Assembly: GCA_029262855.1 (NCBI GenBank)
Contig: JAJCYP010000087.1
Location: 1-35,881 of the forward strand
Source: Bacteroidota bacterium
GTDB lineage: Bacteria; Bacteroidota; Rhodothermia; Rhodothermales; UBA10348
Direction of reading: 5' to 3'
DNA length: 35,881 nucleotides
Part shown: piece by piece, positions 1,872-18,841 of the stretch
Numbering within the stretch: the stretch's first letter is position 1
Layout of the letters: every line of letters begins with the position of its first letter
Program-made: the position numbers and the translations under genes
The notes under the pieces: model-generated
What the model was told of the DNA's origin: nothing
Seen by the model: the letters and a program-made list of their open reading frames with translations, nothing else
The model's database searches: none

Positions 1872-2999
1872 CTAGACGCGCGAGTCGAGAGTGGACGCAG
1901 CCCTTCGGGCGCGCCAGAAGGGCTCGTCGACCCAGCGCCGCTCCCGTTCGTAGAGATAGGCCCGGTTCCGGGCGTATTGTTGGAAGTCAGCATCCTCGGC
2001 CGCCTGCAGTGATGTCAACGCTGAGCGGTGTCCGTGGAGCCTTCGACCCACGGCCGGAAGAGACCGGACGGCAGAGCTCAGGGCCTTCATCATACCCTGA
2101 GCTGAAATCGGGTCGTAGCTGCTTGCGGCGTCGCCGATGGCGACCCAGTCTTCGCCCGCGACGAGATTCAGGCGCCCGGATCGAGCTGAGACAGGCTTCA
2201 GCGACTCGGCGATGCCACTTGAACCTTCGAGTCCCTCCGACACCAGTCGGGTCCGGACGAATGCCCTACACCAGCCCGCGAGTGAGGTCAGTCCCAAATG
2301 CTTCGCCTCCAGGACATCGGCCGTGACCGATACCACAGCCCGCCCGCCCGGAAGACGGGCGGCATGCCACCACCCTTGCGGGAAGGCCTCCAGGCGCGTG
2401 AGCCCGGAAAACCGCTCGCTGTCTACGCTCTCAAACAACAACGAGATGTTGGTGAGCCGATCAAACTCCTGCCGGACCGCCCCCAAGCTTCTCCCGACCA
2501 CAGCGGCTGGACCGGTTGCATCAATCACCACGCGTGCTCGCACGGTCGCAGGACGCCCGTCGCTAAGCCCCACCTGCGCCCCTCCTTGGGAAAGAGGCGT
2601 CACATGGCGAAAGCGCGTCCGCTCCTGCACCTCGACTCCGGAGGCCCGAGCCTCCTCAAGCAACCAGGCCTCGAGCTTGACGCGGTCCACATGCCAGCCG
2701 CTACCGTGTGGATTGAACAGGAAATCGTTGTAGCCAGGCTCGTCGCTGCCCCACAGGGAGACACTCCCCGGGCAGGGATCGTGGCCCTGACTGCAAAAAC
2801 CTTCCCACAGTCCGAGCCGAGAAAGTGGAAGCCGCACATCGGGCGGCAGGCTCTCCCCGATAACCAGTCCTCTCTCCGGCCGCCTGCCTCCGATCAGTAG
2901 GACGCGGCCCACCTCCAGACGCCGTAAACCGATCGCGGCAGCGGCGCCGGCCACACCTGCGCCGACGACCAGAACATCCAACTCCTGCATGCCAGGCAA
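1872..2999 (-). CDS. lodB: LodB/GoxB-type FAD-dependent maturation protein
   Basis: This 375-residue flavoprotein has an N-terminal Rossmann FAD motif (VVGAGVAGAA, GxGxxG near residues 13-18), a central VVIDATGP segment, and a C-terminal FAD motif, WVAIGDAASSYDPISAQGM. This is the layout of the tryptophan-halogenase/monooxygenase-like family to which LodB and GoxB belong. Those proteins are needed to build the cysteine tryptophylquinone cofactor of LodA-type oxidases. The gene follows the lodA-like stop with no gap (3000/2999). Its TTG start has AGGAG nine bases upstream. An internal ATG at 2990 is possible but lies 18 bases from that site. Adjacency to the lodA homologue makes the maturation role much likelier than a free-standing oxygenase. 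Confidence 0.88.
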   Translation of the reverse strand: MPGMQELDVLVVGAGVAGAAAAIGLRRLEVGRVLLIGGRRPERGLVIGESLPPDVRLPLSRLGLWEGFCSQGHDPCPGSVSLWGSDEPGYNDFLFNPHGSGWHVDRVKLEAWLLEEARASGVEVQERTRFRHVTPLSQGGAQVGLSDGRPATVRARVVIDATGPAAVVGRSLGAVRQEFDRLTNISLLFESVDSERFSGLTRLEAFPQGWWHAARLPGGRAVVSVTADVLEAKHLGLTSLAGWCRAFVRTRLVSEGLEGSSGIAESLKPVSARSGRLNLVAGEDWVAIGDAASSYDPISAQGMMKALSSAVRSLPAVGRRLHGHRSALTSLQAAEDADFQQYARNRAYLYERERRWVDEPFWRARRAASTLDSRV

Positions 3000-5012
3000 C
3001 TAGGCCGGCTCCTGGTGCGTCGCATTCATCGGCCACGATTTGATTGCGGGCTCGTCCAAGCGGCTCTCGACCTCCAGAAACTGGTCGAAACTGTACTCGG
3101 TCCCGTCTCCAATGGCTGTGCCCTGGATGATGATGCCGATTTGCGACCACTTCTCCAGCATGTGACTGGAGTCTTGGAAACGACCCATGAGCGCCGGATT
3201 GGGATTCGTTGTGCCGTCACCTCGGACGGAGTAGCGCTGCTCTCCCAACTTCCCGTTCTTTACATCTTCAGCCCGGTAGACAGCCACAGGCCGCTCTGCC
3301 GGCCACGACCAATACAGGGTGAGGTCAATGTTCGGTTCCGTTGTGTGGATGGCGCATGAGTTGTAGTCTGTCTGCCACGGCACGGCCATGAACTTGCAGA
3401 TATCCCCAGGCTCGACCGAATTCTGACCGGTTTGGAGGGGCAGAAATCCAACGGTCAGGAAGGGCTGGGTCGGGTTGCAGGAACGGTAGTCGAGAGGCTT
3501 GCCGGCAATCCGAAATGGCCCGCCACCGTTCGTGCGCCAGTCGTCCTTGTACAGGTCCGGCAATCGAATGATGAAGCTGAATTCGATGCCGGGCGTAAAC
3601 CTTCCGCCCAGGCAGTTCATCAGCGAGACCTTGTCGAGTCTTTCGCCCGGACCTAGCCGATCACGCTCGCCTTTGGTGAACTTTCCGGCATTCCACTGCT
3701 CCAGGAAGAAGTACTGAGTGAGGGAGAGCGAGAGGAAGGACTGACCGGCGTCCCCAAGCGCCAAGGGCATGAGAGGAGCACCAAGCTGGGACTCCGCGTT
3801 GCCCCGCTTCGGATTTCGAACGAACGTGAGCCCGGCCATAATCGTGGATCCGGGGTCATCGTCCTCGGAGATGTCCCCCACTGCATTGTGTGCGTCGATC
3901 GCATAACTCGGCAGGTTCGTGTTCCACGTCTGCAACTGAGTCGCCCGGAAAATGGGGTGGATGTGCTCCCGGAAATTCGGCTTGAAATCCTCTCGATACC
4001 CGTTGTCGTACACATCCGGGCGAAGGCCCATATTCCGGATCCAGCTGTCAAACATGTCGTCCCACAGGGGCACGATATTGAGCGTCTGGGGCGCAAACGC
4101 GGGATCCGCAGTAACCACCCATGCACCGGCAACGGTTTGGGTCGAACCGTCCTCGAACACGATTACGGCATCGACCGGGCCATCGGAAGTATCGTCGAAC
4201 CACCCGTCGTTGTCTACGAAAACCGGGAGCCCGTAATACTCGCCGTCCGGCTGGGCCCAGGCGACGGCCCTCCCGTACCCTCCTGCCACGATGAGTCGCC
4301 CTTCATCATCGGTCTCCATCTCTCCCAACGTATCCAGGGGGCCGTGGGGCTCGCTGAGCTTTGGGAAATGGTCTGCAGGGTAACTCTTGGGGTACAAATG
4401 CAAGGCGTGGACGGCTCCGTGCTCGTCCGCGAAAGCCGCCGGCGTCGCTCTGTTGAAGGCGACCTGCTCGGCTGCGCTGCCCCGCACCACACGCGGCCCC
4501 GCGTCGATGGTGAGCATCCGGATGCGCGCGGGGTTATGGGGATCTTCGCCAACCTGCTGATTTCGGAGTCCTGGGTTTCCGCCATCTTTGTAGAAACTCA
4601 GAAGCGACTGGTCTACTGAGAGATCAGTCTCCTGCCGGTACCCGTTGGCTTTCTTGTTGGCCAAGTGGACCGTCCAGACGATGTCCTTGACGACCTTTCC
4701 GCCAACCTTCGAGCCGATGACCACCTCAACGCCGCCACCGTTGGGATAGGAGTCGCCCCCTTTTTTTGTCGAGTACGCATAGATCCGGAACCGGGCGGCC
4801 TGACGACGGAGAGCGCCCGTGTTGTCCCTCAGGTCATCGCTGGTGATTGGCGTGTCCAGGGTGCCGCGTTTGATGGGCAGTCCGCCTGAGACCTTCGCGC
4901 CTCCGGGTGGGGTGATCCCCGCCGTCGTTTCTGGGGCCAGGTAGTATTCGCTTGAGTTCCCTACCCGTGCGAAGCCGATGCTTGGGTGGACCCGGAGTGA
5001 CAAATCGCTCAT
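3000..5012 (-). CDS. lodA: LodA/GoxA-family quinoprotein amino-acid oxidase
   Basis: The 670-residue protein begins RVHPSIGFARVGNSSEYYL, the hallmark start of LodA-like CTQ-dependent oxidases. LodA oxidises the epsilon-amino group of lysine to the semialdehyde; GoxA oxidises glycine. Both release ammonia and H2O2. The cofactor-forming residues are probably Cys near 467 (LMNCLGGRFTPGIE) and Trp near 546 (MAVPWQTDYNSC), both in the expected family context. There is no obvious signal peptide, as in other family members, some of which are found outside the cell. It sits between the ferritin-like gene and lodB in one transcription unit. The substrate cannot be read from sequence and could be lysine, glycine, another amino acid, or a side chain on a peptide. 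Confidence 0.93.
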   Translation of the reverse strand: MSDLSLRVHPSIGFARVGNSSEYYLAPETTAGITPPGGAKVSGGLPIKRGTLDTPITSDDLRDNTGALRRQAARFRIYAYSTKKGGDSYPNGGGVEVVIGSKVGGKVVKDIVWTVHLANKKANGYRQETDLSVDQSLLSFYKDGGNPGLRNQQVGEDPHNPARIRMLTIDAGPRVVRGSAAEQVAFNRATPAAFADEHGAVHALHLYPKSYPADHFPKLSEPHGPLDTLGEMETDDEGRLIVAGGYGRAVAWAQPDGEYYGLPVFVDNDGWFDDTSDGPVDAVIVFEDGSTQTVAGAWVVTADPAFAPQTLNIVPLWDDMFDSWIRNMGLRPDVYDNGYREDFKPNFREHIHPIFRATQLQTWNTNLPSYAIDAHNAVGDISEDDDPGSTIMAGLTFVRNPKRGNAESQLGAPLMPLALGDAGQSFLSLSLTQYFFLEQWNAGKFTKGERDRLGPGERLDKVSLMNCLGGRFTPGIEFSFIIRLPDLYKDDWRTNGGGPFRIAGKPLDYRSCNPTQPFLTVGFLPLQTGQNSVEPGDICKFMAVPWQTDYNSCAIHTTEPNIDLTLYWSWPAERPVAVYRAEDVKNGKLGEQRYSVRGDGTTNPNPALMGRFQDSSHMLEKWSQIGIIIQGTAIGDGTEYSFDQFLEVESRLDEPAIKSWPMNATHQEPA

Positions 5013-5055
5013 GGTTCTTGCTCAGTGGCCTTTCGGAAAAAGGCGATAACGGTGA

Positions 5056-6036
5056 TCAGGAGATTCTAGGCTCGGCGCCGTTCTGCCAGCAGTTCGACAT
5101 GAACGCACCGACGGCGCTCATTTGACGGCCGAAACGCGGAGGATTCTGTCCGCTGAAGAGCTTCTCCATCGTGGCACAGAGCTGATCGAACCCTTTGATG
5201 AGCTCTGCCTGAGCTCGGGCTCCGGCCGAGCCGGCGTCTGGTTTCCGCACGCCACGATAGACCGCTGGAAAGGACGACGCCTTGCGGATCAATTCGAACT
5301 TGGTGAAGTGGTCGAGCTCGGCGTCGGTTGAGGCAGCGGTGTTCTGGAACTCAGGCGGAATCGTTGCGGCCCCCTCGGTCTTGCCTTCACCCTGCTCCAC
5401 AATGGCCGACATGATCCCATAGATCTGTTTCAGCCCCTCCCGCCCGTTCAGCGTCACCGTTTGGTGCTCGAACTGGTTGAAGTAGTTCGCGAACATGTTC
5501 ACCTGGTTCACGCCGCCCACGATTTGGTCCTGAAAGAGACTTGCCGCGTAGCGCATCGACTCGTAGAGGGCGCCGATTGACCCGTACGTGGTCACGTCAG
5601 CATGCAAAGTCGAACCCTGGCCCGTATCCCACTCGGGATATTCTATGAGGCACATGGTGTTGATTCGCGTTTGGTCCAGCGGCCCCAGCTCAGCAGAGTA
5701 CGGGGAGTAGATCGCAGTGGGATTGGGCGTATCAAGGGAAAAGTCGATATGGGGAATGTCGTTGCCGCGGTACACCGGTGCCTTGAACGTGGGTGTCAGA
5801 CCAAAGGCGTTCGCGATGTTCGAGGCGAGTTGTACATGAAACATCTCCTCGTTGACCACAGACTGAATGAGCGTGAACGCGGGGTCCGTCCGGTCCTTGA
5901 TGGAGTACATCGCCGTGAGATAGTACGGGATGGTCCAAAATTCCAGGTCGACCATGTACTGAAGATGATCGTGGAGCTGTCGGAGCCCCCAGGACGGGTA
6001 GGCTTTCGACTTGGGCGAAGTTGGGCTGTCTTTCAT
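5056..6036 (-). CDS. Ferritin-like protein of the VioB/RebD imine-dimer synthase type
   Basis: The 326-residue protein has the ferritin-like helical core seen in the iminophenyl-pyruvate dimer synthase domain of VioB, RebD and StaD. Likely metal ligands are Glu32 (DLEFWTIPYYLTAMYS) and Glu63/Glu64 with His67 (NEEMFHVQLASNIANAFG). In violacein and rebeccamycin synthesis such proteins couple two imines made by a flavin amino-acid oxidase. Here a flavin amino-acid oxidase is the gene just upstream, as in VioA-VioB. Only the ferritin-like part is present; the rest of the roughly 1000-residue VioB protein is missing. An AGGA ribosome site precedes the ATG. The role as an imine coupler is an inference from family and neighbour; a peroxide-consuming diiron oxidase is an alternative. 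Confidence 0.82.
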   Translation of the reverse strand: MKDSPTSPKSKAYPSWGLRQLHDHLQYMVDLEFWTIPYYLTAMYSIKDRTDPAFTLIQSVVNEEMFHVQLASNIANAFGLTPTFKAPVYRGNDIPHIDFSLDTPNPTAIYSPYSAELGPLDQTRINTMCLIEYPEWDTGQGSTLHADVTTYGSIGALYESMRYAASLFQDQIVGGVNQVNMFANYFNQFEHQTVTLNGREGLKQIYGIMSAIVEQGEGKTEGAATIPPEFQNTAASTDAELDHFTKFELIRKASSFPAVYRGVRKPDAGSAGARAQAELIKGFDQLCATMEKLFSGQNPPRFGRQMSAVGAFMSNCWQNGAEPRIS

Positions 6037-6089
6037 TTCCTGATTATTGAGCTTGGCTGGGCCGAATGCCTGCCGTTCATGCCAATGGG

Positions 6090-7676
6090 CTAGTCGTAGA
6101 AGGGCAGTCCCGCTGCCTCATAGGCCGTGCGAATCCCGGCCTCGATGGCACCCTCAATCCACGCCACCTTGAAGGATGTAGCGTCCCCACCGAAAAACAC
6201 GTTCTCCTCCGGCTCCAACACGAGACCTTCCAGTTCTTCGAACTGCCCGGGGGCAAGCATCGCCGCTTCGCCGATCGAGTACGAATCCAGTTGCCAACTC
6301 TGAGAGGTGCCGACCACGAAGTACTCCCGGATATAGTCGCCGTGGATCCTGGCCAGATTGTCCAGCGCGTATTCCACCCGCAGTGCGCCTCCCAGCGAAT
6401 CCCAGGCCTTCGCCTCTGTCGCCCAGGTGTAGCTGGCAATCACGACCCCACCTTCTCCGCTCCCCAGGTCGGTGGACGGATAGTAAACGAACCGCACCGG
6501 GAGGTCCGTAATGGTGTGCCCTCCATAGATGCCATCGACTTCCTCCCAGAATCGACGGTCGAATTGCAGGAATAGCTTGGTCGACGCGTTGTAGTTCAAC
6601 TCCCGGATGGCCTTTCGCTTTCCCTGCGAGAACGGAGGTTCCACGTCCAGATAGCGCATGGAAGTGAAGGGAATGGTCAGGACCAGAGCGTCCGCCTCAT
6701 AGGAGCGCTCATTTTCGCTACCCGCGCCAACATCGATTTCGCGGTCTGCGCCCATGGTGGCGGCCCGCTCGAATCTCGAAGCAATGGTCCCATCCGCCTG
6801 TGAGCGCCGTAGGCCGACCAGCCGGTGGTTGAAATGGATCTTGACTCCGGCGTGCTGCAGCCCGGGCAGAAAGGCCTTGGGCAGTAGATCCATGCCTCCG
6901 CTGATCCCGAAGTACTTCACGCCCGGCTCGTGATTCACAGTCTCGACGATCTGCTGCATCAGACTGAGGCTCGAGCGCGACTCCAGGTTCACCATGACCT
7001 CGATCATCAGGATCGCTCCAGCCGATAGATCGGTCTCCGTTCTCAGGTACGAGTAGACGGAATGCGATCCGTACCGCTCAACCACCTTGGCCCAGTTCTC
7101 GACGGTGTCTCGTCCAAGCTTCGGATCCACCATCCTTTGGATTGGGGCGAGTGCCTCGATCCACAACTGTTCGCCGGTCTTGCCTCGCTCAGATCCGGTG
7201 GTTGGGAAGTTCAGAATGTCCGGATTCGCCTCGTACTCCTTCCGCCGCACCTTCACGTTGTTCACGAAGATCCACTCCTGCTTGGCCTCGTCGTGATTGA
7301 TGAATTCGAACGTATCCAGGCCAAACTTTTCTATGTACTTGAAGACCAGTTCGTAGGTGTCGATGAGACGCATAGCCCCAGCCTCGCTCATGAGGCCGTC
7401 CGTGAATGGGGCACGTATCGTCTTTACGCGCCCGCCTACTCGGGTGCTCGCCTCAAACAGCCGCACGCGGTGTCCGGCCTCCGCCAGAAGGGTTGCCGTT
7501 ACCAGGCCCGAAACCCCGGCTCCGATCACATCGACACGTCGGGGCGCCTTGGCGGCGGGTAGACCATGCTCAATCGCGTGAAGGAATAGCTTCGTCCGAT
7601 CGGTATAGATCCGCTTGCCACGCTTCGTGCTGAACTCCGGCAAGAGCTCGGGCAGCATTCGCTTCCAGGATTCCAT
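6090..7676 (-). CDS. Flavin amine oxidase (L-amino-acid oxidase type)
   Basis: The 528-residue protein has an N-terminal FAD site (VDVIGAGVSGLVTATLLAEAG, GxGxxG near residues 52-57), followed by RLFEASTRVGGRVKT, the standard flavin amine oxidase pattern. The C-terminal FAD segment is NVFFGGDATSFKVAWIEGAIEAG. The internal layout (YNASTKLFLQFDRRFWEE, SYTWATEAKAW) fits L-amino-acid oxidases, which convert amino acids to imines/2-oxo acids with release of H2O2. A 46-residue lead precedes the FAD fold and is not a signal peptide. GAGG lies about eight bases before the ATG. It is second in the operon, between the propeller gene and the ferritin-like gene. VioA/RebO-like imine supply is the likely role; the substrate is unknown. 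Confidence 0.9.
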   Translation of the reverse strand: MESWKRMLPELLPEFSTKRGKRIYTDRTKLFLHAIEHGLPAAKAPRRVDVIGAGVSGLVTATLLAEAGHRVRLFEASTRVGGRVKTIRAPFTDGLMSEAGAMRLIDTYELVFKYIEKFGLDTFEFINHDEAKQEWIFVNNVKVRRKEYEANPDILNFPTTGSERGKTGEQLWIEALAPIQRMVDPKLGRDTVENWAKVVERYGSHSVYSYLRTETDLSAGAILMIEVMVNLESRSSLSLMQQIVETVNHEPGVKYFGISGGMDLLPKAFLPGLQHAGVKIHFNHRLVGLRRSQADGTIASRFERAATMGADREIDVGAGSENERSYEADALVLTIPFTSMRYLDVEPPFSQGKRKAIRELNYNASTKLFLQFDRRFWEEVDGIYGGHTITDLPVRFVYYPSTDLGSGEGGVVIASYTWATEAKAWDSLGGALRVEYALDNLARIHGDYIREYFVVGTSQSWQLDSYSIGEAAMLAPGQFEELEGLVLEPEENVFFGGDATSFKVAWIEGAIEAGIRTAYEAAGLPFYD

Positions 7677-7715: not shown

Positions 7716-8339
7716 TTAGCAGCAGCACGACGAACTCGCCATACCCCAGTGTGTCAGGCTATTCTTCCCGATGACCGTGGCCTGTCCGGTCGCAACGTTG
7801 ATGTCTAGGAGCTCACCTGCTCCAGAACTTCCGAAGAGTCGGCAGCAGAAGAACGTCAGGCCATAGACCGAACTGAGTCCCGTGGTCCCTATCGTGGATG
7901 CCGCCCCGGTATTGCGGTCTATGCGGGCGAGCACCACTCCGCCGGTAGCGTTGAGCGCCCCGAAGAGAACACCATTCGAGTCGATAGCCAGATCGCCGCT
8001 CGATGAGAGGCCGCTCCCGAAACTTCCGACAGCCGTCCCCGCTCCCGTTACAGGATTGATTTCAATCAGCTGCGCTCCTGCAGCCGCGTAGATGGTTCCG
8101 TCTGGCGCGACAGCCAAACCATTGGTCGAGAAGCCTGTCGCCCCAACCGCGGCACCGGCGCCCGTGGAGGGATCAATCCTCAGAAATTGTGAGAAGCTGA
8201 CTCCATACAAGGTCGGGCCGTGAAAGGCTATGTCGGTGACATGAGAAATCCCGACAGGTCCAACTAGTCTCGGTGAAGCCGTTGCCGGGTCCAGGGTATA
8301 TAGATTGCTAGTCGGGTCGACGACATAAAGTTTGTTCAT
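7716..8339 (-). CDS. Small beta-propeller-like protein with a C-terminal Cys-Cys-Cys
   Basis: This 207-residue protein is built from about five repeats of some 40 residues, each with a DP.TG....VG.TG core (IDPSTGAGAAVGATG, INPVTGAGTAVGSFG, IDRNTGAASTIGTTG, INVATGQATVIG). This resembles DUF4394/YncE-like propeller blades. No signal peptide is visible. It ends in SSSCCC, and a CC pair also occurs near residue 173 (FFCCRLFG). A GAGG ribosome site lies eight bases before the ATG. As the first gene of the oxidase operon it may be a scaffold, a metal or quinone-related partner, or even a protein substrate. None of these is established. A cysteine tail of this kind is unusual for a propeller and may form disulfides or bind metal. 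Confidence 0.8.
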   Translation of the reverse strand: MNKLYVVDPTSNLYTLDPATASPRLVGPVGISHVTDIAFHGPTLYGVSFSQFLRIDPSTGAGAAVGATGFSTNGLAVAPDGTIYAAAGAQLIEINPVTGAGTAVGSFGSGLSSSGDLAIDSNGVLFGALNATGGVVLARIDRNTGAASTIGTTGLSSVYGLTFFCCRLFGSSGAGELLDINVATGQATVIGKNSLTHWGMASSSCCC

Positions 8340-8839: not shown

Positions 8840-9060
8840 GAACACTCGGACCGCATCCAAAGACTCCGAAAGGGGCTCGCTCTCGGGCAGGTGGCACCCG
8901 TCCATGTCGCCGCCTACCTGAAACAGCGCGGCGCCGTGGCCACCATCAGTCAGCACCGCGCAGCGCTAAAGGTGCCCTTTGACCGATCGCGCCCTCACCC
9001 ATTCGATGCTCTATACGTTCGGCCGGGTGTCGGCGGTCACCGGGTTCTTGAGCGAGTCCT
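8840..9060 (+). pseudogene. Decayed tyrosine recombinase (phage-type integrase) fragment
   Basis: One frame gives KGLALGQVAPVHVAAYLKQ and then TISQHRAALKVPFD, matching the N-terminal core-binding (SAM-like) domain of tyrosine recombinases, where PVHVAAYI and QHLAALR..FDW are typical. From about 8981 another frame gives DRALTHSMLYTFGRVSAVTG, matching the start of the catalytic domain (RDRALI.LM.YTFARV.A..G). The linker between the domains is deleted with a frame change, and the catalytic Arg-His-Arg-Tyr region downstream is gone. Its right end runs under the antisense 3' end of the P450 gene. It is next to the alaS relic, so both probably record one integration event. Confidence 0.75.
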
Positions 9061-10317
9061 GGCCTCGAGCTTTTCCGGAGAAGACCCCGTCGTTGATTTC
9101 GCGCGGTATGTGAGCGAAGCGTCGACGGCGAAAGAGACTAGTCGGCCGCCCCGCCCCCTTGGGAGCGATCCGCGGCGGACGAGGGCGATGTGGCTTGCGT
9201 CGGAGCAGACGTACCGAAGGGTCTCGATCATCAGAGACATCGAGAGGCGCCGGCCGGGGCAGTTCCGCTTCCCCATGCCGAAGGGCAAGTAGCTGAACCC
9301 CTTCGCCGCCCTCGGGTCCTCGAACCGCTCGGGATGAAATCGATGGGGGGCGTCCCAGTAGTCCGCGTTCCGGTGGAGCGGGCAGACCGAGATCATGAAC
9401 TCGTGCGGCGGCGTGCCTATCGCGGGGGCGCCGTCCGCCAAAACCGGCTCGTAGCCGAACTGCCGGAACGGCGGGTAGAGGCGGAGCACCTCGAGAGCAA
9501 AGTAATTGGCGAACGCCGGGTCCTCGCGGATCCGCTTCTGGTACCGTGGCCGAGCCGCCAGGCAGAGCAGGGCGGACCCCAGCGCGGACGCGAGGCTGAA
9601 CGACGAAACGAGCATGCTCCGGATCTCGCCCATAAACTGGGCTTCCGTGATCTTACCCGAGGTCCTGAGGTCGGCGAGCGCCTTGAGCCAGGAGTCGGGC
9701 TTCGGGATCGAGAAGTCGCACACCATCTGGTCGAGCGTTCGAGCGATCCTCAGCATGGTGTAGTCACGTTTGAAGACAGTCCGCTCCAGGACGTACCGGA
9801 CCGGAAGGAGCGCTTTCGTGTGCAGCCGGAGGGATAGCATGATCCCCTCGAGTACCATGGTCCGTGTCCCGTGGGGGAATCGGGTTTGTGAGATGCAGTC
9901 GTCGAGGGGCTTTAGCACTTCCACGCCGAGTGTGTGCTCCAGCATGGCCCGGTAGAGCTCCCGGATGAGGGGGTCGGTGAGGAGGACCGTCCGCTCCCCC
10001 TCGTCCAGCGGCGGCAACACACCGTAGACGATCGCTCGCGCCATCTTGGGGATGACGGCCTCGCGCGGCATGTACGCGAGCGACATCCGCTTAAGCCACC
10101 GCGCATGCCCGTCCTCGCTGACGACGATGGATTGCTGACTCAGGTGGAACTGAGTCAGCATTTCCATCACGAACCTCGAGCGGGTGAACGGCGTCCTTGC
10201 ATAGGCGGCGATCCGCTCGGGATCGGAGCTGTATTCGAGACGGTTCTTGAGCCATGGCAGAGAGTAGACTCTCCCGGTCCCCAGCCACTTGAAGGCGTCT
10301 AGCAGACCCCGACTCAC
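9037..10317 (-). CDS. Cytochrome P450, translationally coupled to the borosin-like gene
   Basis: The likely start is the GTG at 10317, which overlaps the TGA of the upstream gene in GTGA. This gives 426 residues. A longer frame to 10623 lies wholly inside the upstream gene and is compositionally aberrant. The heme-thiolate loop is FGMGKRNCPGRRL, with Cys near 353. The ExxR motif is in ALEVLRLYPP, and the PERF region is HPERFE. The I-helix region reads MLVSSFSLASALGSALL and lacks the usual acid-alcohol (A/G)Gx(D/E)T pair used for O2 activation. No membrane anchor or signal is visible. The last 25 or so residues lie antisense to the integrase relic and may be a recent extension. Tight coupling suggests that it acts on the product of the partner gene, but the reaction is unknown. 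Confidence 0.87.
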   Translation of the reverse strand: MSRGLLDAFKWLGTGRVYSLPWLKNRLEYSSDPERIAAYARTPFTRSRFVMEMLTQFHLSQQSIVVSEDGHARWLKRMSLAYMPREAVIPKMARAIVYGVLPPLDEGERTVLLTDPLIRELYRAMLEHTLGVEVLKPLDDCISQTRFPHGTRTMVLEGIMLSLRLHTKALLPVRYVLERTVFKRDYTMLRIARTLDQMVCDFSIPKPDSWLKALADLRTSGKITEAQFMGEIRSMLVSSFSLASALGSALLCLAARPRYQKRIREDPAFANYFALEVLRLYPPFRQFGYEPVLADGAPAIGTPPHEFMISVCPLHRNADYWDAPHRFHPERFEDPRAAKGFSYLPFGMGKRNCPGRRLSMSLMIETLRYVCSDASHIALVRRGSLPRGRGGRLVSFAVDASLTYRAKSTTGSSPEKLEARTRSRTR

Positions 10318-13247
10318 CGGCCGGAGGCTTGGTCGAGCTTCCGCTTGCGCAGCCGCAGCCGGACTTTGTGGTAGGGGAGGCACACTTTTAAGGCGGCCTT
10401 GAGGGCCAGGTACCGGAGCGGATACGGGAGTCGGAGCTTCGCGAGCGGCCGGAGCCCGTACGCGTAGACCTCGTCCACCAGTTCCGCGTCGTCGTAGGCC
10501 GTGGCCTTCTTGTCGACGAGGTCGGCGGTCGCGATCTTGTAAAGGTCCTTCGCAAGGTCGAACTCGCCCTCCTTGATCAGGGCCGTGATCGGGCGGAGGT
10601 GACGGACCCAGAACGAGTGCCACTCCGCCTCCGTGGAGCGGTCTACGATCGTCGGCGCTACCTTGTAGTAGAGCTCGACCGAGGCGCGGTCTTCGCCGCT
10701 CGTCATCTGGGCGTCGCGGAGGTAACGGGCCAGCCGGAGCGGCTCGCTGTGGTCGGGGAGTCCGAGGCTGCCCACGACGGCCGTGGTCAGGAAGCAGACG
10801 CTGTCGTCGGCGTCGTCGGCGTCGTTATCGTCGTTGTCGTCGTCGTTGTTGTCGTCGTCGTTGTTATCGTCGTCGTTGTTATCGTCGTTATCGTCGTTGT
10901 CGTCGTTGTCGTCGTTATCGTCGTTGTCGTCGTCGTCTCCACCCGGATTGTCTTCGTCGTTGAACTCGTTGGCCTCGTCCTCCGGCACGCCCTCGTTGTC
11001 CGGGTTGTCCTCAAGGTCGCCCCCATTCTCTTCGGCGTTCTTGAACTTGCTTGAGAGGTAATTGAACCCCTTCTTCGCGAGGTACTTCATGACCTCGAAG
11101 ATGACCATGGCACTGACCAAGACGAAGATCTGGGTCCCGATTTTCACCCATGCCTGGTCCGCACTCTCGTCCGAACCTGGGGTCGGGGGCGGGTCCGTGC
11201 CGAGGATCCCGTTCACGTTCGGGCTTGAGGGCTTAGTCCCGGAGTAGTAGTACCCGAAGAAATTGGGGCCGGTGTACTCGTTGTCGCTGTAGATTTGGAA
11301 GTACGCCCACTGCATGTAGAGGATGAGTGTGTCGCTCCCGATCGTCGCTTCAAAGTAGCTGTAGAACGGGTTGAACGTGGCGTCCACCGTCGTCCCCTGG
11401 TACGTGATCTTCGACCCATCAGAGGATATCGTCAGCGTGGCCGACGACGAATCGACCGTCGCGGTGTAGTCTCCGGCCCAGAATGAGGGGTCGTCGACGG
11501 TGGCCGCCTTGAGGGCGGCCTCTGAGGACCAAACGCTCCGCCGTCCGGCCGAGGTGATCTCTGGTTCGCTGCTGCTAGTCAGCGAGACCGAGACGTCAAA
11601 GTCCGTCGTGTCCGTCCCGTCCTCGGTCACGACACAGGACGAGAACGTGATCGAGCCGGTGTACGTGAAGCTTCCCGTCGGCGACACGATAAACGCGCCC
11701 GTGGTGCCGTTAAACGCACTCCCTGCGGTGATGTCGATGAGCTCTTTCGAAGTCGGAGTCGCCACCTTCAACTGGTAGACTCCGTTGTTGCTATAGATCT
11801 TGATCAGCAGGCTCGGCTGCCCCGCCGCATCGAAGGTCTGGTACGTTCCGTACAGGATCGAAGGGCTGGTCCCGAACGGGGGGTACGTGACGTTTGAGCC
11901 GTCGTTGCTGGAGTCGCCGACCGAGTCGTACGAGCCCCCCGTCACAGTTGTGATCGAGTCCTCGACATCCTGCACTGACACCCCGGAGTAGCCGGCGTTA
12001 TTGATGTAGGTCTGGACCGCATCGCTGGCCTGCTGCTCCGTGTCCCCGTTGCTGAGGGCAGAGTAGTACGTGCTGTACAGGTCAGACGCTGTGCCGTTCT
12101 CCAGCAGGCTATTCAGGAAGTCGTTGACGGTGGGCTGGCTGGCGTCGTCGTTCTTAGCCGCGTAGGAGACCCGACTGATCGACCCAGAGAGCAGGGCGCG
12201 CTGTTCGAGCTTGGTGAGGGGGTGAGACTCGACGACTGCCTTCGGATCGCTCTTGAACGCCCTGAGCGTGCTCGGGTCGGTCGCGAGACTGTGGATGAGG
12301 TCCAACATCGGCCCGTTCGCTCGCCGCTGGACGTATCCCTCGGGAAGTTGGTGATACGGCAGGTTTGCGGCGACCTTCCTTGTCTTGTCCGTGTTGGACT
12401 TTTCCCAGTCCGTCGGGCCCATCACCAACTTCGCGCCTGCCCGGCCGTAGCCGGCCTTATCGACGCGGTCCGCCTCCGCACCTCGGAGGGCCTTAGGGGG
12501 GATGTAGAGCGTTGAGACGCCGGTCACGTGGCGGCGGACTGTGTCCGGGTCGAGGAGGTTCGAGAGGTCCAATTCGACCTTCTCCGACTCGATGCCCGGG
12601 AAGTTCGACCCCCGGTACAGGACGCACGGCGTGTCGCCCCCGTAGTCCTCCATGAGGGCCTCAATGAGGAGGGGGAATTTAGCCTTCTCGTAGCCTGAGA
12701 AGTCGAATTTCCCGTCGGCGAACGCGCCGATCTGGAGCATGATCACCTGGCTGGTCGGGTCCAGCGGGCGCTTGCGGAGGTAATAATCATTCGCGTCGAC
12801 GATCATGCAGCCGTTCCGCGAGGGATCCACCTCAAGGTCAGCGAAGAGGTAGTCCATCGTCGTAATCCCTGGGTACAAGAGGGCCTCGTGGCCCTCCTGG
12901 CGGGCCTGGTACAGCACTCGACGGACTGCCTTCACAAACACGCCTGGGTGCCCGTAGTACACGCCGCACACCGACTCGCCGTCTCGGACCGCGGCCAGCA
13001 TGGCCTCTGCCATCTGGAGGTATGTGATGTTCCGACGCTTCCCCGTTCCGTAGTACTGGTAGAGGTCGTGGCACTGGCTGTTTAGCGAGCGAATAAAAGA
13101 GGCGGTAACGCCGTCTGCAGCGTGGTAGAAGACCCGATCCGCAGCCTCGATCTCGCCGACCGCCTCAAGCGTCAGGTGGGAGATAGCCTTGAGGCCTGTA
13201 CCGACGAATGCAATCCGACCCTTTGATTTCTCGCTTTTCTTTTTCAT
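10314..13247 (-). CDS. Borosin-type SAM methyltransferase fused to beta domains, TM helix, Asp/Asn linker and CFLTTA domain
   Basis: The 977-residue protein starts at the ATG at 13247; a GTG at 13268 is possible. Residues 10-255 form a tetrapyrrole-methylase-fold SAM methyltransferase of the OphMA/SonM borosin class. Visible motifs are RIAFVGTGLKAISHLTLEAV, the YQYYGTGKRRNITYLQMAE segment, VCGVYYGHPGVFV and LYPGITTMDYLFADL. Residues 318-362 (LATDPSTLRAFKSDPKAV, PLTKLEQRALLSG) match the LigA-like/borosin-binding module found in borosin precursors. Two beta-rich stretches follow (about 455-560 and 590-670), then a transmembrane helix (about 700-722), an acidic Asp/Asn tract (768-814), and a C-terminal domain starting SVCFLTTAVVGSLGLPD. 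Borosin enzymes methylate backbone amides of a fused or separate peptide. Which part would be the substrate core is unclear. The call of a methyltransferase of this class is firm; peptide N-methylation is an inference. Confidence 0.85.
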   Translation of the reverse strand: MKKKSEKSKGRIAFVGTGLKAISHLTLEAVGEIEAADRVFYHAADGVTASFIRSLNSQCHDLYQYYGTGKRRNITYLQMAEAMLAAVRDGESVCGVYYGHPGVFVKAVRRVLYQARQEGHEALLYPGITTMDYLFADLEVDPSRNGCMIVDANDYYLRKRPLDPTSQVIMLQIGAFADGKFDFSGYEKAKFPLLIEALMEDYGGDTPCVLYRGSNFPGIESEKVELDLSNLLDPDTVRRHVTGVSTLYIPPKALRGAEADRVDKAGYGRAGAKLVMGPTDWEKSNTDKTRKVAANLPYHQLPEGYVQRRANGPMLDLIHSLATDPSTLRAFKSDPKAVVESHPLTKLEQRALLSGSISRVSYAAKNDDASQPTVNDFLNSLLENGTASDLYSTYYSALSNGDTEQQASDAVQTYINNAGYSGVSVQDVEDSITTVTGGSYDSVGDSSNDGSNVTYPPFGTSPSILYGTYQTFDAAGQPSLLIKIYSNNGVYQLKVATPTSKELIDITAGSAFNGTTGAFIVSPTGSFTYTGSITFSSCVVTEDGTDTTDFDVSVSLTSSSEPEITSAGRRSVWSSEAALKAATVDDPSFWAGDYTATVDSSSATLTISSDGSKITYQGTTVDATFNPFYSYFEATIGSDTLILYMQWAYFQIYSDNEYTGPNFFGYYYSGTKPSSPNVNGILGTDPPPTPGSDESADQAWVKIGTQIFVLVSAMVIFEVMKYLAKKGFNYLSSKFKNAEENGGDLEDNPDNEGVPEDEANEFNDEDNPGGDDDDNDDNDDNDDNDDNDDNNDDDNNDDDNNDDDNDDNDADDADDSVCFLTTAVVGSLGLPDHSEPLRLARYLRDAQMTSGEDRASVELYYKVAPTIVDRSTEAEWHSFWVRHLRPITALIKEGEFDLAKDLYKIATADLVDKKATAYDDAELVDEVYAYGLRPLAKLRLPYPLRYLALKAALKVCLPYHKVRLRLRKRKLDQASGR
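10802..10945. repeat. Trinucleotide-rich tract coding for Asp/Asn
   Basis: About 140 bases consist almost only of GAC, GAT, AAC and AAT codons on the minus strand, giving a low-complexity DDN run in the borosin-like protein (residues near 768-814). It is a simple-sequence tract prone to length change. It makes a long, acidic, probably disordered linker between the transmembrane helix and the last domain. Spurious Val- or Ser-rich frames on the other strand come from it. Confidence 0.9.
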
Positions 13248-13347
13248 GATCTGGTGGATCACTCTCACTGACCCTATTAAGGTGAATCACGCCCGGGTTC
13301 GTAGCGCGCCCGATGCCTCGAGCGACCGGACCACTTCGCGAAAGCGT

Positions 13348-17746: not shown

Positions 17747-18841
17747 ATGAAAACGCGCTTCCTGGGCATTGCCCTCATCGTACTGGCCGGCCTCGCCCTG
17801 ATGAATCTGTATCAGGCCGTCGCCAGGAATTTTGGAGACAGTGAAGTTCACGCGACCGAAGAGGGTGGCAAGTACACCTACTCGACAGCCACGGCAACCG
17901 CCAAGGCTGACGACTTCGATTTCGACTTCGACTTTGATTTCGATTTTGACTTCGACTTTGATCAGGACAGCGACGGCGATCAGTCAGACGCCTCTCGCTC
18001 AGTCATGATCGACAAGACCTTCAGCGTCCGGGATGGGCAGCAACTCCTGATCGATGTCCAGCACAGCGACATCGACGTGCAGACCCGAACGGGCGGTGAC
18101 GAGGCCCGCATCATCGTCCGACTCGAAAGCCGGAATTGGGAGCGTGCGGTTTCCAGGTTCGAGGACATGGACTTCCGGGTCGGCCAGGACGGCAACCGCG
18201 TTTGGCTTCGTTCGGACATGCCCCGGAATACGAATTGGCGCACCCGGATGAACATTCAAGTGGTCGCCATCATCCCGGCTCGTTTTGACGTGGACGTCCA
18301 GAGCACCCACGGTGACTTGGAGATGGAGCAACTGATGGGCGATTTGCAACTCAGGACCACCCATGGTGACGTGGAGCTGCAAGGCATTGCCGGCCGCCTT
18401 ATCGACGTAAACACCACCCACGGTGACATCGAGAGCGGCGATCTGAAGGCGGAGACCGTCAGGATCAAGACTACTCACGGGGACATGGAGCTTGGTCGGG
18501 TCGATTCGGACACCTTCACCGCGTCTACCACCCACAGCGACGTGGTCATCGAACACCTCACGGGCGACTCCGAGATTCGGACGACACATGGCGACGTCCT
18601 TGTCCAGGTGGATGACACAGAGCGCCTCAAAGTCTCGACCACGCACGGCGATGTCGCCGTGACCGTCCCGAGCAGCTTCGGTGCCGACGTCAGCATGTCG
18701 GCCGAACGGGTGTCACTCCCCAGTGGCTCCGACTTCAAGGGCGATGTCAAGAAGAAATCGGCTCGGGGCGAGTTGAACGGGGGCGGCGCACGGGTGAACA
18801 TCTCGACCACCCACGGAAGCGCGACGCTACGCAATCGTTAG
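17747..18841 (+). CDS. DUF4097-like beta-helix protein with DF tract and THGD repeats
   Basis: The 364-residue exported protein has an N-terminal signal or anchor segment (residues 5-24, FLGIALIVLAGLALMNLYQA). A low-complexity D(FD)8 stretch lies near residues 56-72, and a DUF4097 ('putative adhesin') beta-repeat domain follows to the end. The repeat domain carries about eight TTHGD-type motifs spaced some 20 residues apart, such as STHGDLEM, TTHGDVEL and TTHGDIES. In many DUF4097 proteins the equivalent position is Ser or Asn; here it is almost always His, which would stack as a ladder on the helix. The gene stands alone, diverges from alaS, and ends in a strong terminator. The function of the family is not established; a cell-envelope role is likely. 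Confidence 0.85.
   Translation: MKTRFLGIALIVLAGLALMNLYQAVARNFGDSEVHATEEGGKYTYSTATATAKADDFDFDFDFDFDFDFDFDQDSDGDQSDASRSVMIDKTFSVRDGQQLLIDVQHSDIDVQTRTGGDEARIIVRLESRNWERAVSRFEDMDFRVGQDGNRVWLRSDMPRNTNWRTRMNIQVVAIIPARFDVDVQSTHGDLEMEQLMGDLQLRTTHGDVELQGIAGRLIDVNTTHGDIESGDLKAETVRIKTTHGDMELGRVDSDTFTASTTHSDVVIEHLTGDSEIRTTHGDVLVQVDDTERLKVSTTHGDVAVTVPSSFGADVSMSAERVSLPSGSDFKGDVKKKSARGELNGGGARVNISTTHGSATLRNR
17912..17962 (+). repeat. Hexanucleotide-type tract coding for (Asp-Phe)n
   Basis: Seventeen codons alternate GAC/GAT and TTC/TTT, giving D(FD)8 just after the signal segment of the DUF4097-like protein. The period is six bases with third-position variation, so selection for the dipeptide pattern, not only slippage, may maintain it. 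Confidence 0.9.

What the first reader, a model, noticed from the sequence alone, without database searches (positions are those of the whole stretch)
10314..13247. Borosin-type methyltransferase built into a 977-residue membrane-tethered multidomain protein
The N-terminus is a clear TP-methylase of the OphMA/SonM kind followed by a LigA-like precursor module. The chain then continues through beta domains, a transmembrane helix, a 45-residue Asp/Asn linker and a CFLTTA domain. Known fused borosins end in short core peptides; this one does not. Either the substrate core is hidden in the chain, or the enzyme methylates its own surface or linker, or the class has been reused for another task.
Basis: partly seen in the sequence, partly recalled or inferred. 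Interest (0 to 1): 0.88.

Follow-up and report, generated by a model that had tools for sequence, protein, structure and literature searches.

The report
Fused borosin with Asp/Asn-tract candidate core
This bacterial gene most likely encodes a self-modifying protein in which a peptide-backbone methylase is fused to its own substrate carrier, and the best candidate substrate is an unusual run of aspartate and asparagine; the class is known, but this layout and this candidate substrate are unusual.

Summary
A 977-residue ORF (minus strand, ATG 13247 to stop 10314) starts with a borosin methyltransferase: 240-251 bits to OphMA/dbOphMA and 108 to SonM, against 62 to the generic TP-methylase model. 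Four SonM-type active-site positions are intact by motif spacing. The premise that known fused borosins end in short cores is outdated: bacterial type III KchMA carries up to 11 methylations at residues 742-796 (PMC11395268). Two Bacteroidota MAGs encode the whole architecture (62-64% identical) and, like the window, have a P450 gene directly downstream. Borosin systems of a Spirochaetaceae MAG, Burkholderia, Azospirillum and Mycetohabitans carry acidic repeats (EAA, TTEV, DVDT) at comparable positions. Among 432 open frames of the loci held, such tracts occurred only in these borosin genes. Best explanation: a fused borosin, akin to types III/VIII, whose substrate is the 45-residue Asp/Asn "linker", with 162 residues after it. 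The tract lacks the aliphatic residues that known enzymes prefer, so its methylation remains unproven, as does membrane tethering. New variant of a known kind.

The parts
10314..13247 (-). whole fused protein, 977 aa (984 aa if the upstream GTG at 13268 is used; residue numbers below count from the GTG)
   Evidence: relatives begin at about the same place
12483..13220 (-). borosin-type SAM-dependent alpha-N-methyltransferase domain (residues 17-262)
   Evidence: Pfam TP_methylase 62.5 bits; OphMA/dbOphMA 240-251 bits and SonM 108 bits; 79-83% identical among the window protein, P0002 and P0003
12954..13061 (-). active-site motif stretch holding Y70, R79, Y83, Y105 = SonM Y58, R67, Y71, Y93 by spacing
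   Evidence: motif scan; invariant in A1 and A2; SonM numbers from PMC8429565
12153..12482 (-). clasp plus borosin-binding-domain-like (LigA-like) helices (residues 263-372)
   Evidence: covered by the OphMA alignment; SonA E 0.7-0.9; helices predicted (low confidence)
11949..12131 (-). second helical module (residues 380-440), of unknown family; in B. arboris the methyltransferase gene ends after the equivalent stretch
11871..11948 (-). Gly-Gly containing linker (residues 441-466) between the methyltransferase module and the carrier module
   Evidence: alignment; GG invariant in the window protein, P0002 and P0003
11199..11870 (-). beta-rich carrier module (residues 467-690)
   Evidence: hhalign of its second half plus helix against the Spirochaetaceae/B. 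arboris carrier, E 4.6e-4 but probability only 33%; strands predicted, poor model
11034..11159 (-). hydrophobic then Lys-rich helix (residues 704-745); membrane role unproven
   Evidence: hydropathy scan; long helix predicted, low confidence
10803..10937 (-). 45-residue Asp/Asn tract (residues 778-822), proposed methylation substrate (core)
   Evidence: acidic repeats at comparable positions in related borosin proteins
10317..10802 (-). C-terminal 162 residues with the CFLTTA/CFI-box helical domain (residues 823-984)
   Evidence: NCBIfam NF041770 33.5 bits, below cut-off; 60% identical to each of two relatives; all-helical model, pLDDT 56
9037..10317 (-). cytochrome P450, 426 aa, GTG start overlapping the stop of the methyltransferase gene (GTGA)
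   Evidence: Pfam p450 1.2e-18 on the longer frame 9037-10623; junction; orthologues in the same place in L005 (64%) and L006 (59%)

Best explanation
It is a fused borosin: an autocatalytic peptide-backbone N-methyltransferase and its own substrate carrier in one chain. The methyltransferase and BBD/clasp (residues 17-372) do the chemistry. What follows the Gly-Gly linker is the precursor, which a relative (Burkholderia arboris) encodes as a separate gene: a beta-rich carrier, a helix, the low-complexity acidic tract, and here a 162-residue follower with a CFLTTA/CFI-box domain. The likely substrate is the 45-residue Asp/Asn tract, threaded into the active site of the partner subunit and methylated on backbone nitrogens; the P450 encoded downstream would then oxidise the product. 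Shown: methyltransferase family, active-site motif, whole architecture and P450 neighbour conserved in three genomes (the window's, whose phylum is not told, and two Bacteroidota MAGs), acidic tracts at comparable positions in related systems. Inferred: dimer and cross-subunit methylation (from OphMA), that the tract is methylated, what the P450 acts on, and the fate of the product.
For: Methyltransferase identity: OphMA/dbOphMA 240-251 bits and SonM 108 bits against 62.5 bits for generic TP_methylase and 46 for YabN; active-site motif intact. Conserved whole: L005 975 aa and L006 998 aa keep every part including the D/N tract and CFLTTA domain, each followed directly by an orthologous P450. 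Tract position: L007 has the same order of parts but ends in EAA repeats; B. arboris has methyltransferase, BBD and helices in one gene and carrier plus TTEV repeats in the next. The L007 and B. arboris carriers are homologous (BLASTP 1e-9 for that single comparison); the window/P0002/P0003 carrier matches their joint profile at E 4.6e-4, probability 33%. Azospirillum and Mycetohabitans have DVDT-tract precursor-like proteins beside the methyltransferase gene, with 187 and 179 aa after the tract. Of 432 distinct open frames of 150 aa or more in the 32 sequences held then, 8 had an acidic low-complexity 40-mer; these are 7 genes, all in borosin systems. The tract is 37, 45 and 48 residues in P0002, the window and P0003 by my trimming of the stretches, with mixed codons in L005 and L006. 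PMC11395268: type III cores alternate acidic and other residues; KchMA is methylated at 742-796; 'cluster 4' fused borosins have about 160 aa after the potential core.
Against: The tract has no aliphatic residue except two Ala, while KchMA prefers Ala/Val/Leu with some Asp, AboMA takes only uncharged residues, and KchMA-TEV did not methylate acidic residues at its site (PMC11395268). The CFLTTA-type domain occurs at the C-terminus of unrelated Chitinophagales proteins, once after a Ser/Gly run, so the tract could be a plain spacer. No similarity was found between the window-type carrier or follower and the Azospirillum/Mycetohabitans precursors. The methyltransferase tree leaves the place of the window's three-protein clade open and does not join it to L007 or B. 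arboris. No protease or exporter was seen among the immediate neighbours; the peptidases M24, M3 and M16 lie some 8 kb or more away and look like housekeeping genes. The control sampled loci fetched mostly because of borosins. KchMA's sequence was not at hand.
Confidence: 0.6

Rival explanations
1. Fused borosin, but the Asp/Asn tract is only a spacer in front of a mobile CFLTTA domain. The core lies elsewhere, for example in the strongly conserved segment after the Gly-Gly motif (residues about 461-480), or is a separate peptide elsewhere in the genome.
For: The CFLTTA-type domain is a detachable C-terminal module in unrelated proteins. The segment TYPPFGTSPS-LYGTYQTF after the GG is nearly invariant in the window protein, P0002 and P0003. 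The tract lacks the residues known enzymes prefer (PMC11395268).
Against: The equivalent of 461-480 in L007 and B. arboris is the start of the carrier and lacks the YPPFGTSPS part. Acidic repeats at comparable positions recur in relatives without a CFLTTA domain.
Confidence: 0.27
2. The protein keeps its methylated tract: it is not a natural-product precursor but a self-modified structural or adhesive stalk, protease-hardened by backbone methylation.
For: The chain continues for 162 conserved residues after the tract in 3 of 3 proteins of this type; no protease gene adjoins in the window; the split precursors' tracts match staphylococcal SD-repeat stalk models, a low-complexity match only.
Against: The adjoining P450 suggests peptide tailoring; no signal peptide apparent by eye; membrane span unproven.
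Confidence: 0.1
3. The methyltransferase acts on a non-peptide substrate, as a tetrapyrrole-type methylase.
For: The Pfam family is named for tetrapyrrole methylases.
Against: Similarity to OphMA/SonM far exceeds that to the tetrapyrrole and YabN models hit, and the borosin active-site motif is kept.
Confidence: 0.03

Closest known systems
Type III borosins (AboMA; bacterial KchMA, WP_084224105.1)
   Same: Methyltransferase, BBD and a long acidic-patterned core in one long chain; KchMA methylated at residues 742-796 (PMC11395268)
   Different: Here the tract is almost pure Asp/Asn and is followed by 162 more residues with a CFLTTA domain; KchMA sequence not compared
Unclassified fused borosins 'cluster 4' and type VIII split borosins
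   Same: About 160 residues follow the potential core (PMC11395268); here 162
   Different: Homology of that follower not testable, sequences not at hand; no similarity to the Azospirillum/Mycetohabitans precursors, which I take for type VIII-like from their layout alone
Type I borosin OphMA/dbOphMA
   Same: Methyltransferase plus clasp, 38-39% identical, same active-site residues
   Different: OphMA is 417 aa (PMC8429565) with a short C-terminal core (recalled); no carrier, tract or CFLTTA domain
Spirochaetaceae L007 fused protein
   Same: Methyltransferase, BBD, carrier, helix, acidic-type repeat in the same order
   Different: Extra N-terminal Doc/Fic domain, EAA repeat at the very C-terminus, no CFLTTA domain, and by eye no P450 beside it

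Membership tests
Borosin alpha-N-methyltransferase | Closer to OphMA/SonM than to other TP-methylases | tested here: met
   (240-251 and 108 bits) against (62.5 and 46 bits)
Borosin alpha-N-methyltransferase | Active-site Tyr/Arg/Tyr/Tyr set | tested here: met
   Y70, R79, Y83, Y105 by motif spacing; SonM numbering from PMC8429565
Borosin alpha-N-methyltransferase | Borosin-binding domain or clasp | tested here: met
   OphMA alignment continues through it; SonA alone only E 0.7-0.9
Borosin alpha-N-methyltransferase | Homodimer with cross-subunit backbone N-methylation | not testable with these tools
   needs protein and mass spectrometry
Type III fused borosin | Methyltransferase, BBD and acidic-patterned core in one chain | tested here: inconclusive
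   all present in sequence, but that the tract is a core is not shown
Type III fused borosin | Core at the C-terminus | tested here: not met
   162 residues follow the tract
Cluster 4 / type VIII-like | About 160 residues after the core | tested here: met
   162 residues, on condition that the tract is the core
Cluster 4 / type VIII-like | Follower homologous to type VIII C-terminus | tested here: inconclusive
   no similarity of P0001 to P0009 or P0003 to P0007; reference sequences not held
CFI-box-CTERM domain | Score over the curated cut-off | tested here: not met
   33.5, 26.8 and 26.1 bits for the three proteins against 40; 37.5 in the six-frame search

The most novel reading that the evidence does not exclude
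A borosin whose substrate is a near-pure Asp/Asn tract inside a long protein: a backbone-N-methylated polyanion, oxidised by a partner P450 and possibly kept as part of a mature protein rather than released as a peptide. No ribosomal product of that chemistry is known to me, and acidic residues are ones that the enzymes described in PMC11395268 handle poorly.
Probability: 0.3. Interest if true: 0.8.

Novelty: new variant of a known kind. Interest (0 to 1): 0.55.

Why it matters
It makes a clear test possible: can a borosin enzyme methylate the backbone of an Asp/Asn polymer? That would widen the substrate range of the main known ribosomal route to this modification. The set of relatives (fused and split, different repeats, P450 or StrG-like partners) shows where to look for the substrate in borosins whose core is not obvious.

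Tried and rejected
Rejected: tetrapyrrole or YabN function. Left as unproven: a simple membrane tether. Rejected: the whole minus-strand run downstream (LodA, LodB and others) as part of the system, because only the P450 is shared beside the gene in L006, and the L005 contig ends after it (read by eye).

Led nowhere: Pfam on the second helical module (no match); CFLTTA part in viral contigs (9 stretches matched a pattern, none a relative); carrier against plasmids (no match); papers naming the CFI-box domain or its motif (none). The AlphaFold models of residues 318-745 (pLDDT 42.5) and of the C-terminus (pLDDT 56.3) were too poor for a fold search, so none was run. The tree is invalid (my script read gapped rows); one search replaces it and leaves the place of the window's clade open. 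Two hits (G722, G935) match only the EAA repeat region and were not counted as relatives. The DVDT tract ends printed came from a poor pattern; one search gives better ones. In one search frames with the same first 60 residues were counted once, so the window's gene appears through a truncated copy (L017).

Full report
Observation. The ORF is on the minus strand, 10314-13247 from ATG (977 aa) or to 13268 from GTG; the finding gave no strand, and the plus-strand reading has stops. Its anatomy is as described: TP-methylase at 19-219, an OphMA-like stretch to 375, a second helical module, a beta-rich part, one hydrophobic helix (706-724), a tract of 45 residues with 30 Asp, 13 Asn and 2 Ala at 778-822, and 162 residues after it that begin with a CFI-box/CFLTTA domain scoring 33.5 bits, under its cut-off of 40.

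The methyltransferase is a borosin enzyme. phmmer against solved structures gives dbOphMA 250-251 bits and OphMA 235-240 bits to residue 375, MroMA 181 and SonM 106-108; the Pfam model gives 62.5 and the best NCBIfam model, YabN, 46. The residues that SonM uses (Y58, R67, Y71, Y93; PMC8429565, passages) correspond by spacing to Y70, R79, Y83 and Y105. The motif was found in the window protein, P0002-P0006, B. arboris, the viral-contig protein of L015 and OphMA; it was not found in the type IV-like protein of L009 (the proteins of L029 and L030 were not scanned). The window genome holds one other TP-methylase gene, not studied.

Relatives. A pattern scan of genome contigs matched 46 stretches, of which 3 encode relatives (two short patterns, so not exhaustive): L005 (Chitinophagales MAG, 975 aa), L006 (Cytophagales MAG, 998 aa) and L007 (Spirochaetaceae MAG). 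L005 and L006 keep the whole order of parts and are 64 and 62% identical to the window protein. Among these three proteins the methyltransferase is 79-83% identical, the beta parts 65-74%, the CFLTTA part 66-74%, and the hydrophobic helix region only 28-38%. The window's own phylum is not told by the tools.

How rare. In the window's order 2 of 114 genomes matched: its own, and one with a partial 27% hit. In a sample of its phylum 2 of 395 matched: its own and one split system. In the order of L006 1 of 241 matched, the genome of L006 itself. In the order of L005 5 of 298 matched: its own, one methyltransferase-like domain and three CFLTTA-type domains. In the order of L007, searched with a query that lacks the CFLTTA part, 3 of 241 matched: its own and two repeat-only hits. 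These searches score only the best few candidates per genome.

Partner gene. In 3 of 3 loci with the full architecture a P450 follows at once: window 9037-10317 (GTG overlapping the stop), with L005 64% and L006 59% identical to it. The best NCBIfam hit of the window P450 is the RiPP enzyme ApyO, at 45.9 bits against a cut-off of 525. By eye no other neighbour is shared with L006; the L005 contig ends there. In Azospirillum and Mycetohabitans the gene after the methyltransferase is annotated StrG, and B. arboris has a similar frame by eye; I read these as possible dioxygenases, but Pfam found no domain in the Azospirillum one. ABC transporter genes lie beyond the Azospirillum precursors.

Where the substrate is. 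Relatives act as a key. B. arboris plasmid DNA (L026) has a gene for methyltransferase, BBD and helical module that stops, and after it a second gene with its own ATG for the beta carrier and TTEV repeats. In L007 the same pieces are one chain that ends in EAA repeats. The L007 and B. arboris carriers are homologous (BLASTP 1e-9 for the single comparison), and the second half of the window-type carrier plus helix matches their joint profile at E 4.6e-4, though with a probability of only 33%. Azospirillum lipoferum and Mycetohabitans endofungorum have, beside the methyltransferase gene, precursor-like proteins with 89- and 82-residue DVDT tracts and 187 and 179 residues after them. So what follows the Gly-Gly linker in the window protein looks like a precursor, and its Asp/Asn tract sits where relatives have an acidic repeat. 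PMC11395268 (abstract, introduction, sections 2.1-2.3, discussion, methods and legends read, passages in 113) says that type III cores alternate acidic and other residues, that bacterial KchMA is methylated up to 11 times at 742-796, and that a 'cluster 4' of fused borosins has about 160 residues after the potential core. Of PMC8429565 I read the introduction, one results section and passages; of PMC11285071 passages only.

Control. In the 32 sequences held (262,651 bases, some overlapping), 432 distinct stop-to-stop frames of at least 150 aa were examined; 8 had a 40-mer with entropy of at most 2 bits and at least 25% Asp+Glu. Two of the 8 are the same L007 gene, so they are 7 genes, all borosin fusions or precursor-like genes beside a borosin methyltransferase. 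The loci were fetched mostly because of borosins, so this is a control inside them only. Not every borosin locus has such a tract: none was flagged in L009, L015, L016, L029 or L030. The tract uses mixed codons in L005 and L006; in the window its codon choice follows the gene's own bias, and at DNA level it is a degenerate 9-base repeat.

Against. The tract lacks the aliphatic residues that KchMA prefers; AboMA modifies only uncharged residues and KchMA-TEV did not take acidic ones (PMC11395268). CFLTTA-type domains end unrelated Chitinophagales proteins (L023-L025), so the tract may be only a spacer. No sequence similarity links the window-type carrier or C-terminus with the DVDT precursors. 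The methyltransferase tree puts the window with L005 and L006 (100/100) but leaves that clade's place open. The AlphaFold models are poor. The membrane claim is weak: one helix, Lys-rich at its C-terminal end, with a SAM enzyme before it and no signal peptide apparent by eye. A real span would part enzyme and tract.

Place in the known. Member of the borosin methyltransferase family: yes on sequence. Type III in the strict sense: no, since the tract is not C-terminal. It may fit the fused, type VIII-like cluster noted in PMC11395268; that could not be tested because those sequences are not at hand and the papers by Imani (2022), Cho (2022) and Lee (2024) are not held. My literature searches (listings only) showed no paper that I recognised as describing a borosin with a CFLTTA domain or an Asp/Asn core; they cover open-licence papers only.

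Verdict. A fused borosin on all sequence evidence, with a P450 partner, conserved in three genomes, and a new variant of a known kind. That the Asp/Asn tract is the substrate is the best-supported but unproven reading.

Noticed in passing
L007 1153-4149: A Doc/Fic-family domain (DOC_P1, 46 bits, cut-off 38.65; Pfam Fic) is fused in front of the borosin methyltransferase in a Spirochaetaceae MAG.
   Followed up: partly
L026 5004-7325: Burkholderia arboris plasmid: methyltransferase-BBD gene and, after a stop, a separate carrier gene with TTEV repeats, then by eye a StrG-like frame; no features listed for this stretch.
   Followed up: partly
L027 1139-8032 and L028 1061-7824: Azospirillum and Mycetohabitans gene runs with hypothetical proteins, one in each with an 82-89 residue DVDT tract, a methyltransferase gene and a gene annotated StrG.
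   Followed up: partly
L015 7458-8822: A viral contig encodes a BBD-first borosin methyltransferase (type 0-like by eye); neighbouring frames look by eye like a terminase and a portal protein.
   Followed up: no
window 17747-18841: A DUF4097 protein carries a (DF)n run of about 20 residues near its N-terminus, an alternating acidic pattern; probably unrelated low complexity.
   Followed up: no
window 1872-7676: Minus-strand run with LodA- and LodB-like genes (both under their NCBIfam cut-offs), a ferritin-like protein and a flavin amine oxidase, downstream of the P450.
   Followed up: no
window 7716-8339: Small DUF6923/DUF4394 repeat protein that ends in Ser-Ser-Ser-Cys-Cys-Cys.
   Followed up: no
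window 9037-10317: The P450 and both orthologues keep SMLVSSFSLASALGSALLCLAARP where I would expect the I helix, without the usual acid-alcohol pair (recalled motif), so it may not be an ordinary monooxygenase.
   Followed up: no
L023 532-1815, L024 75-638, L025 1486-2481: CFLTTA/CFITTA/CFVTTA-type domain as a C-terminal module on unrelated proteins of genomes in the order of L005; function unknown.
   Followed up: partly
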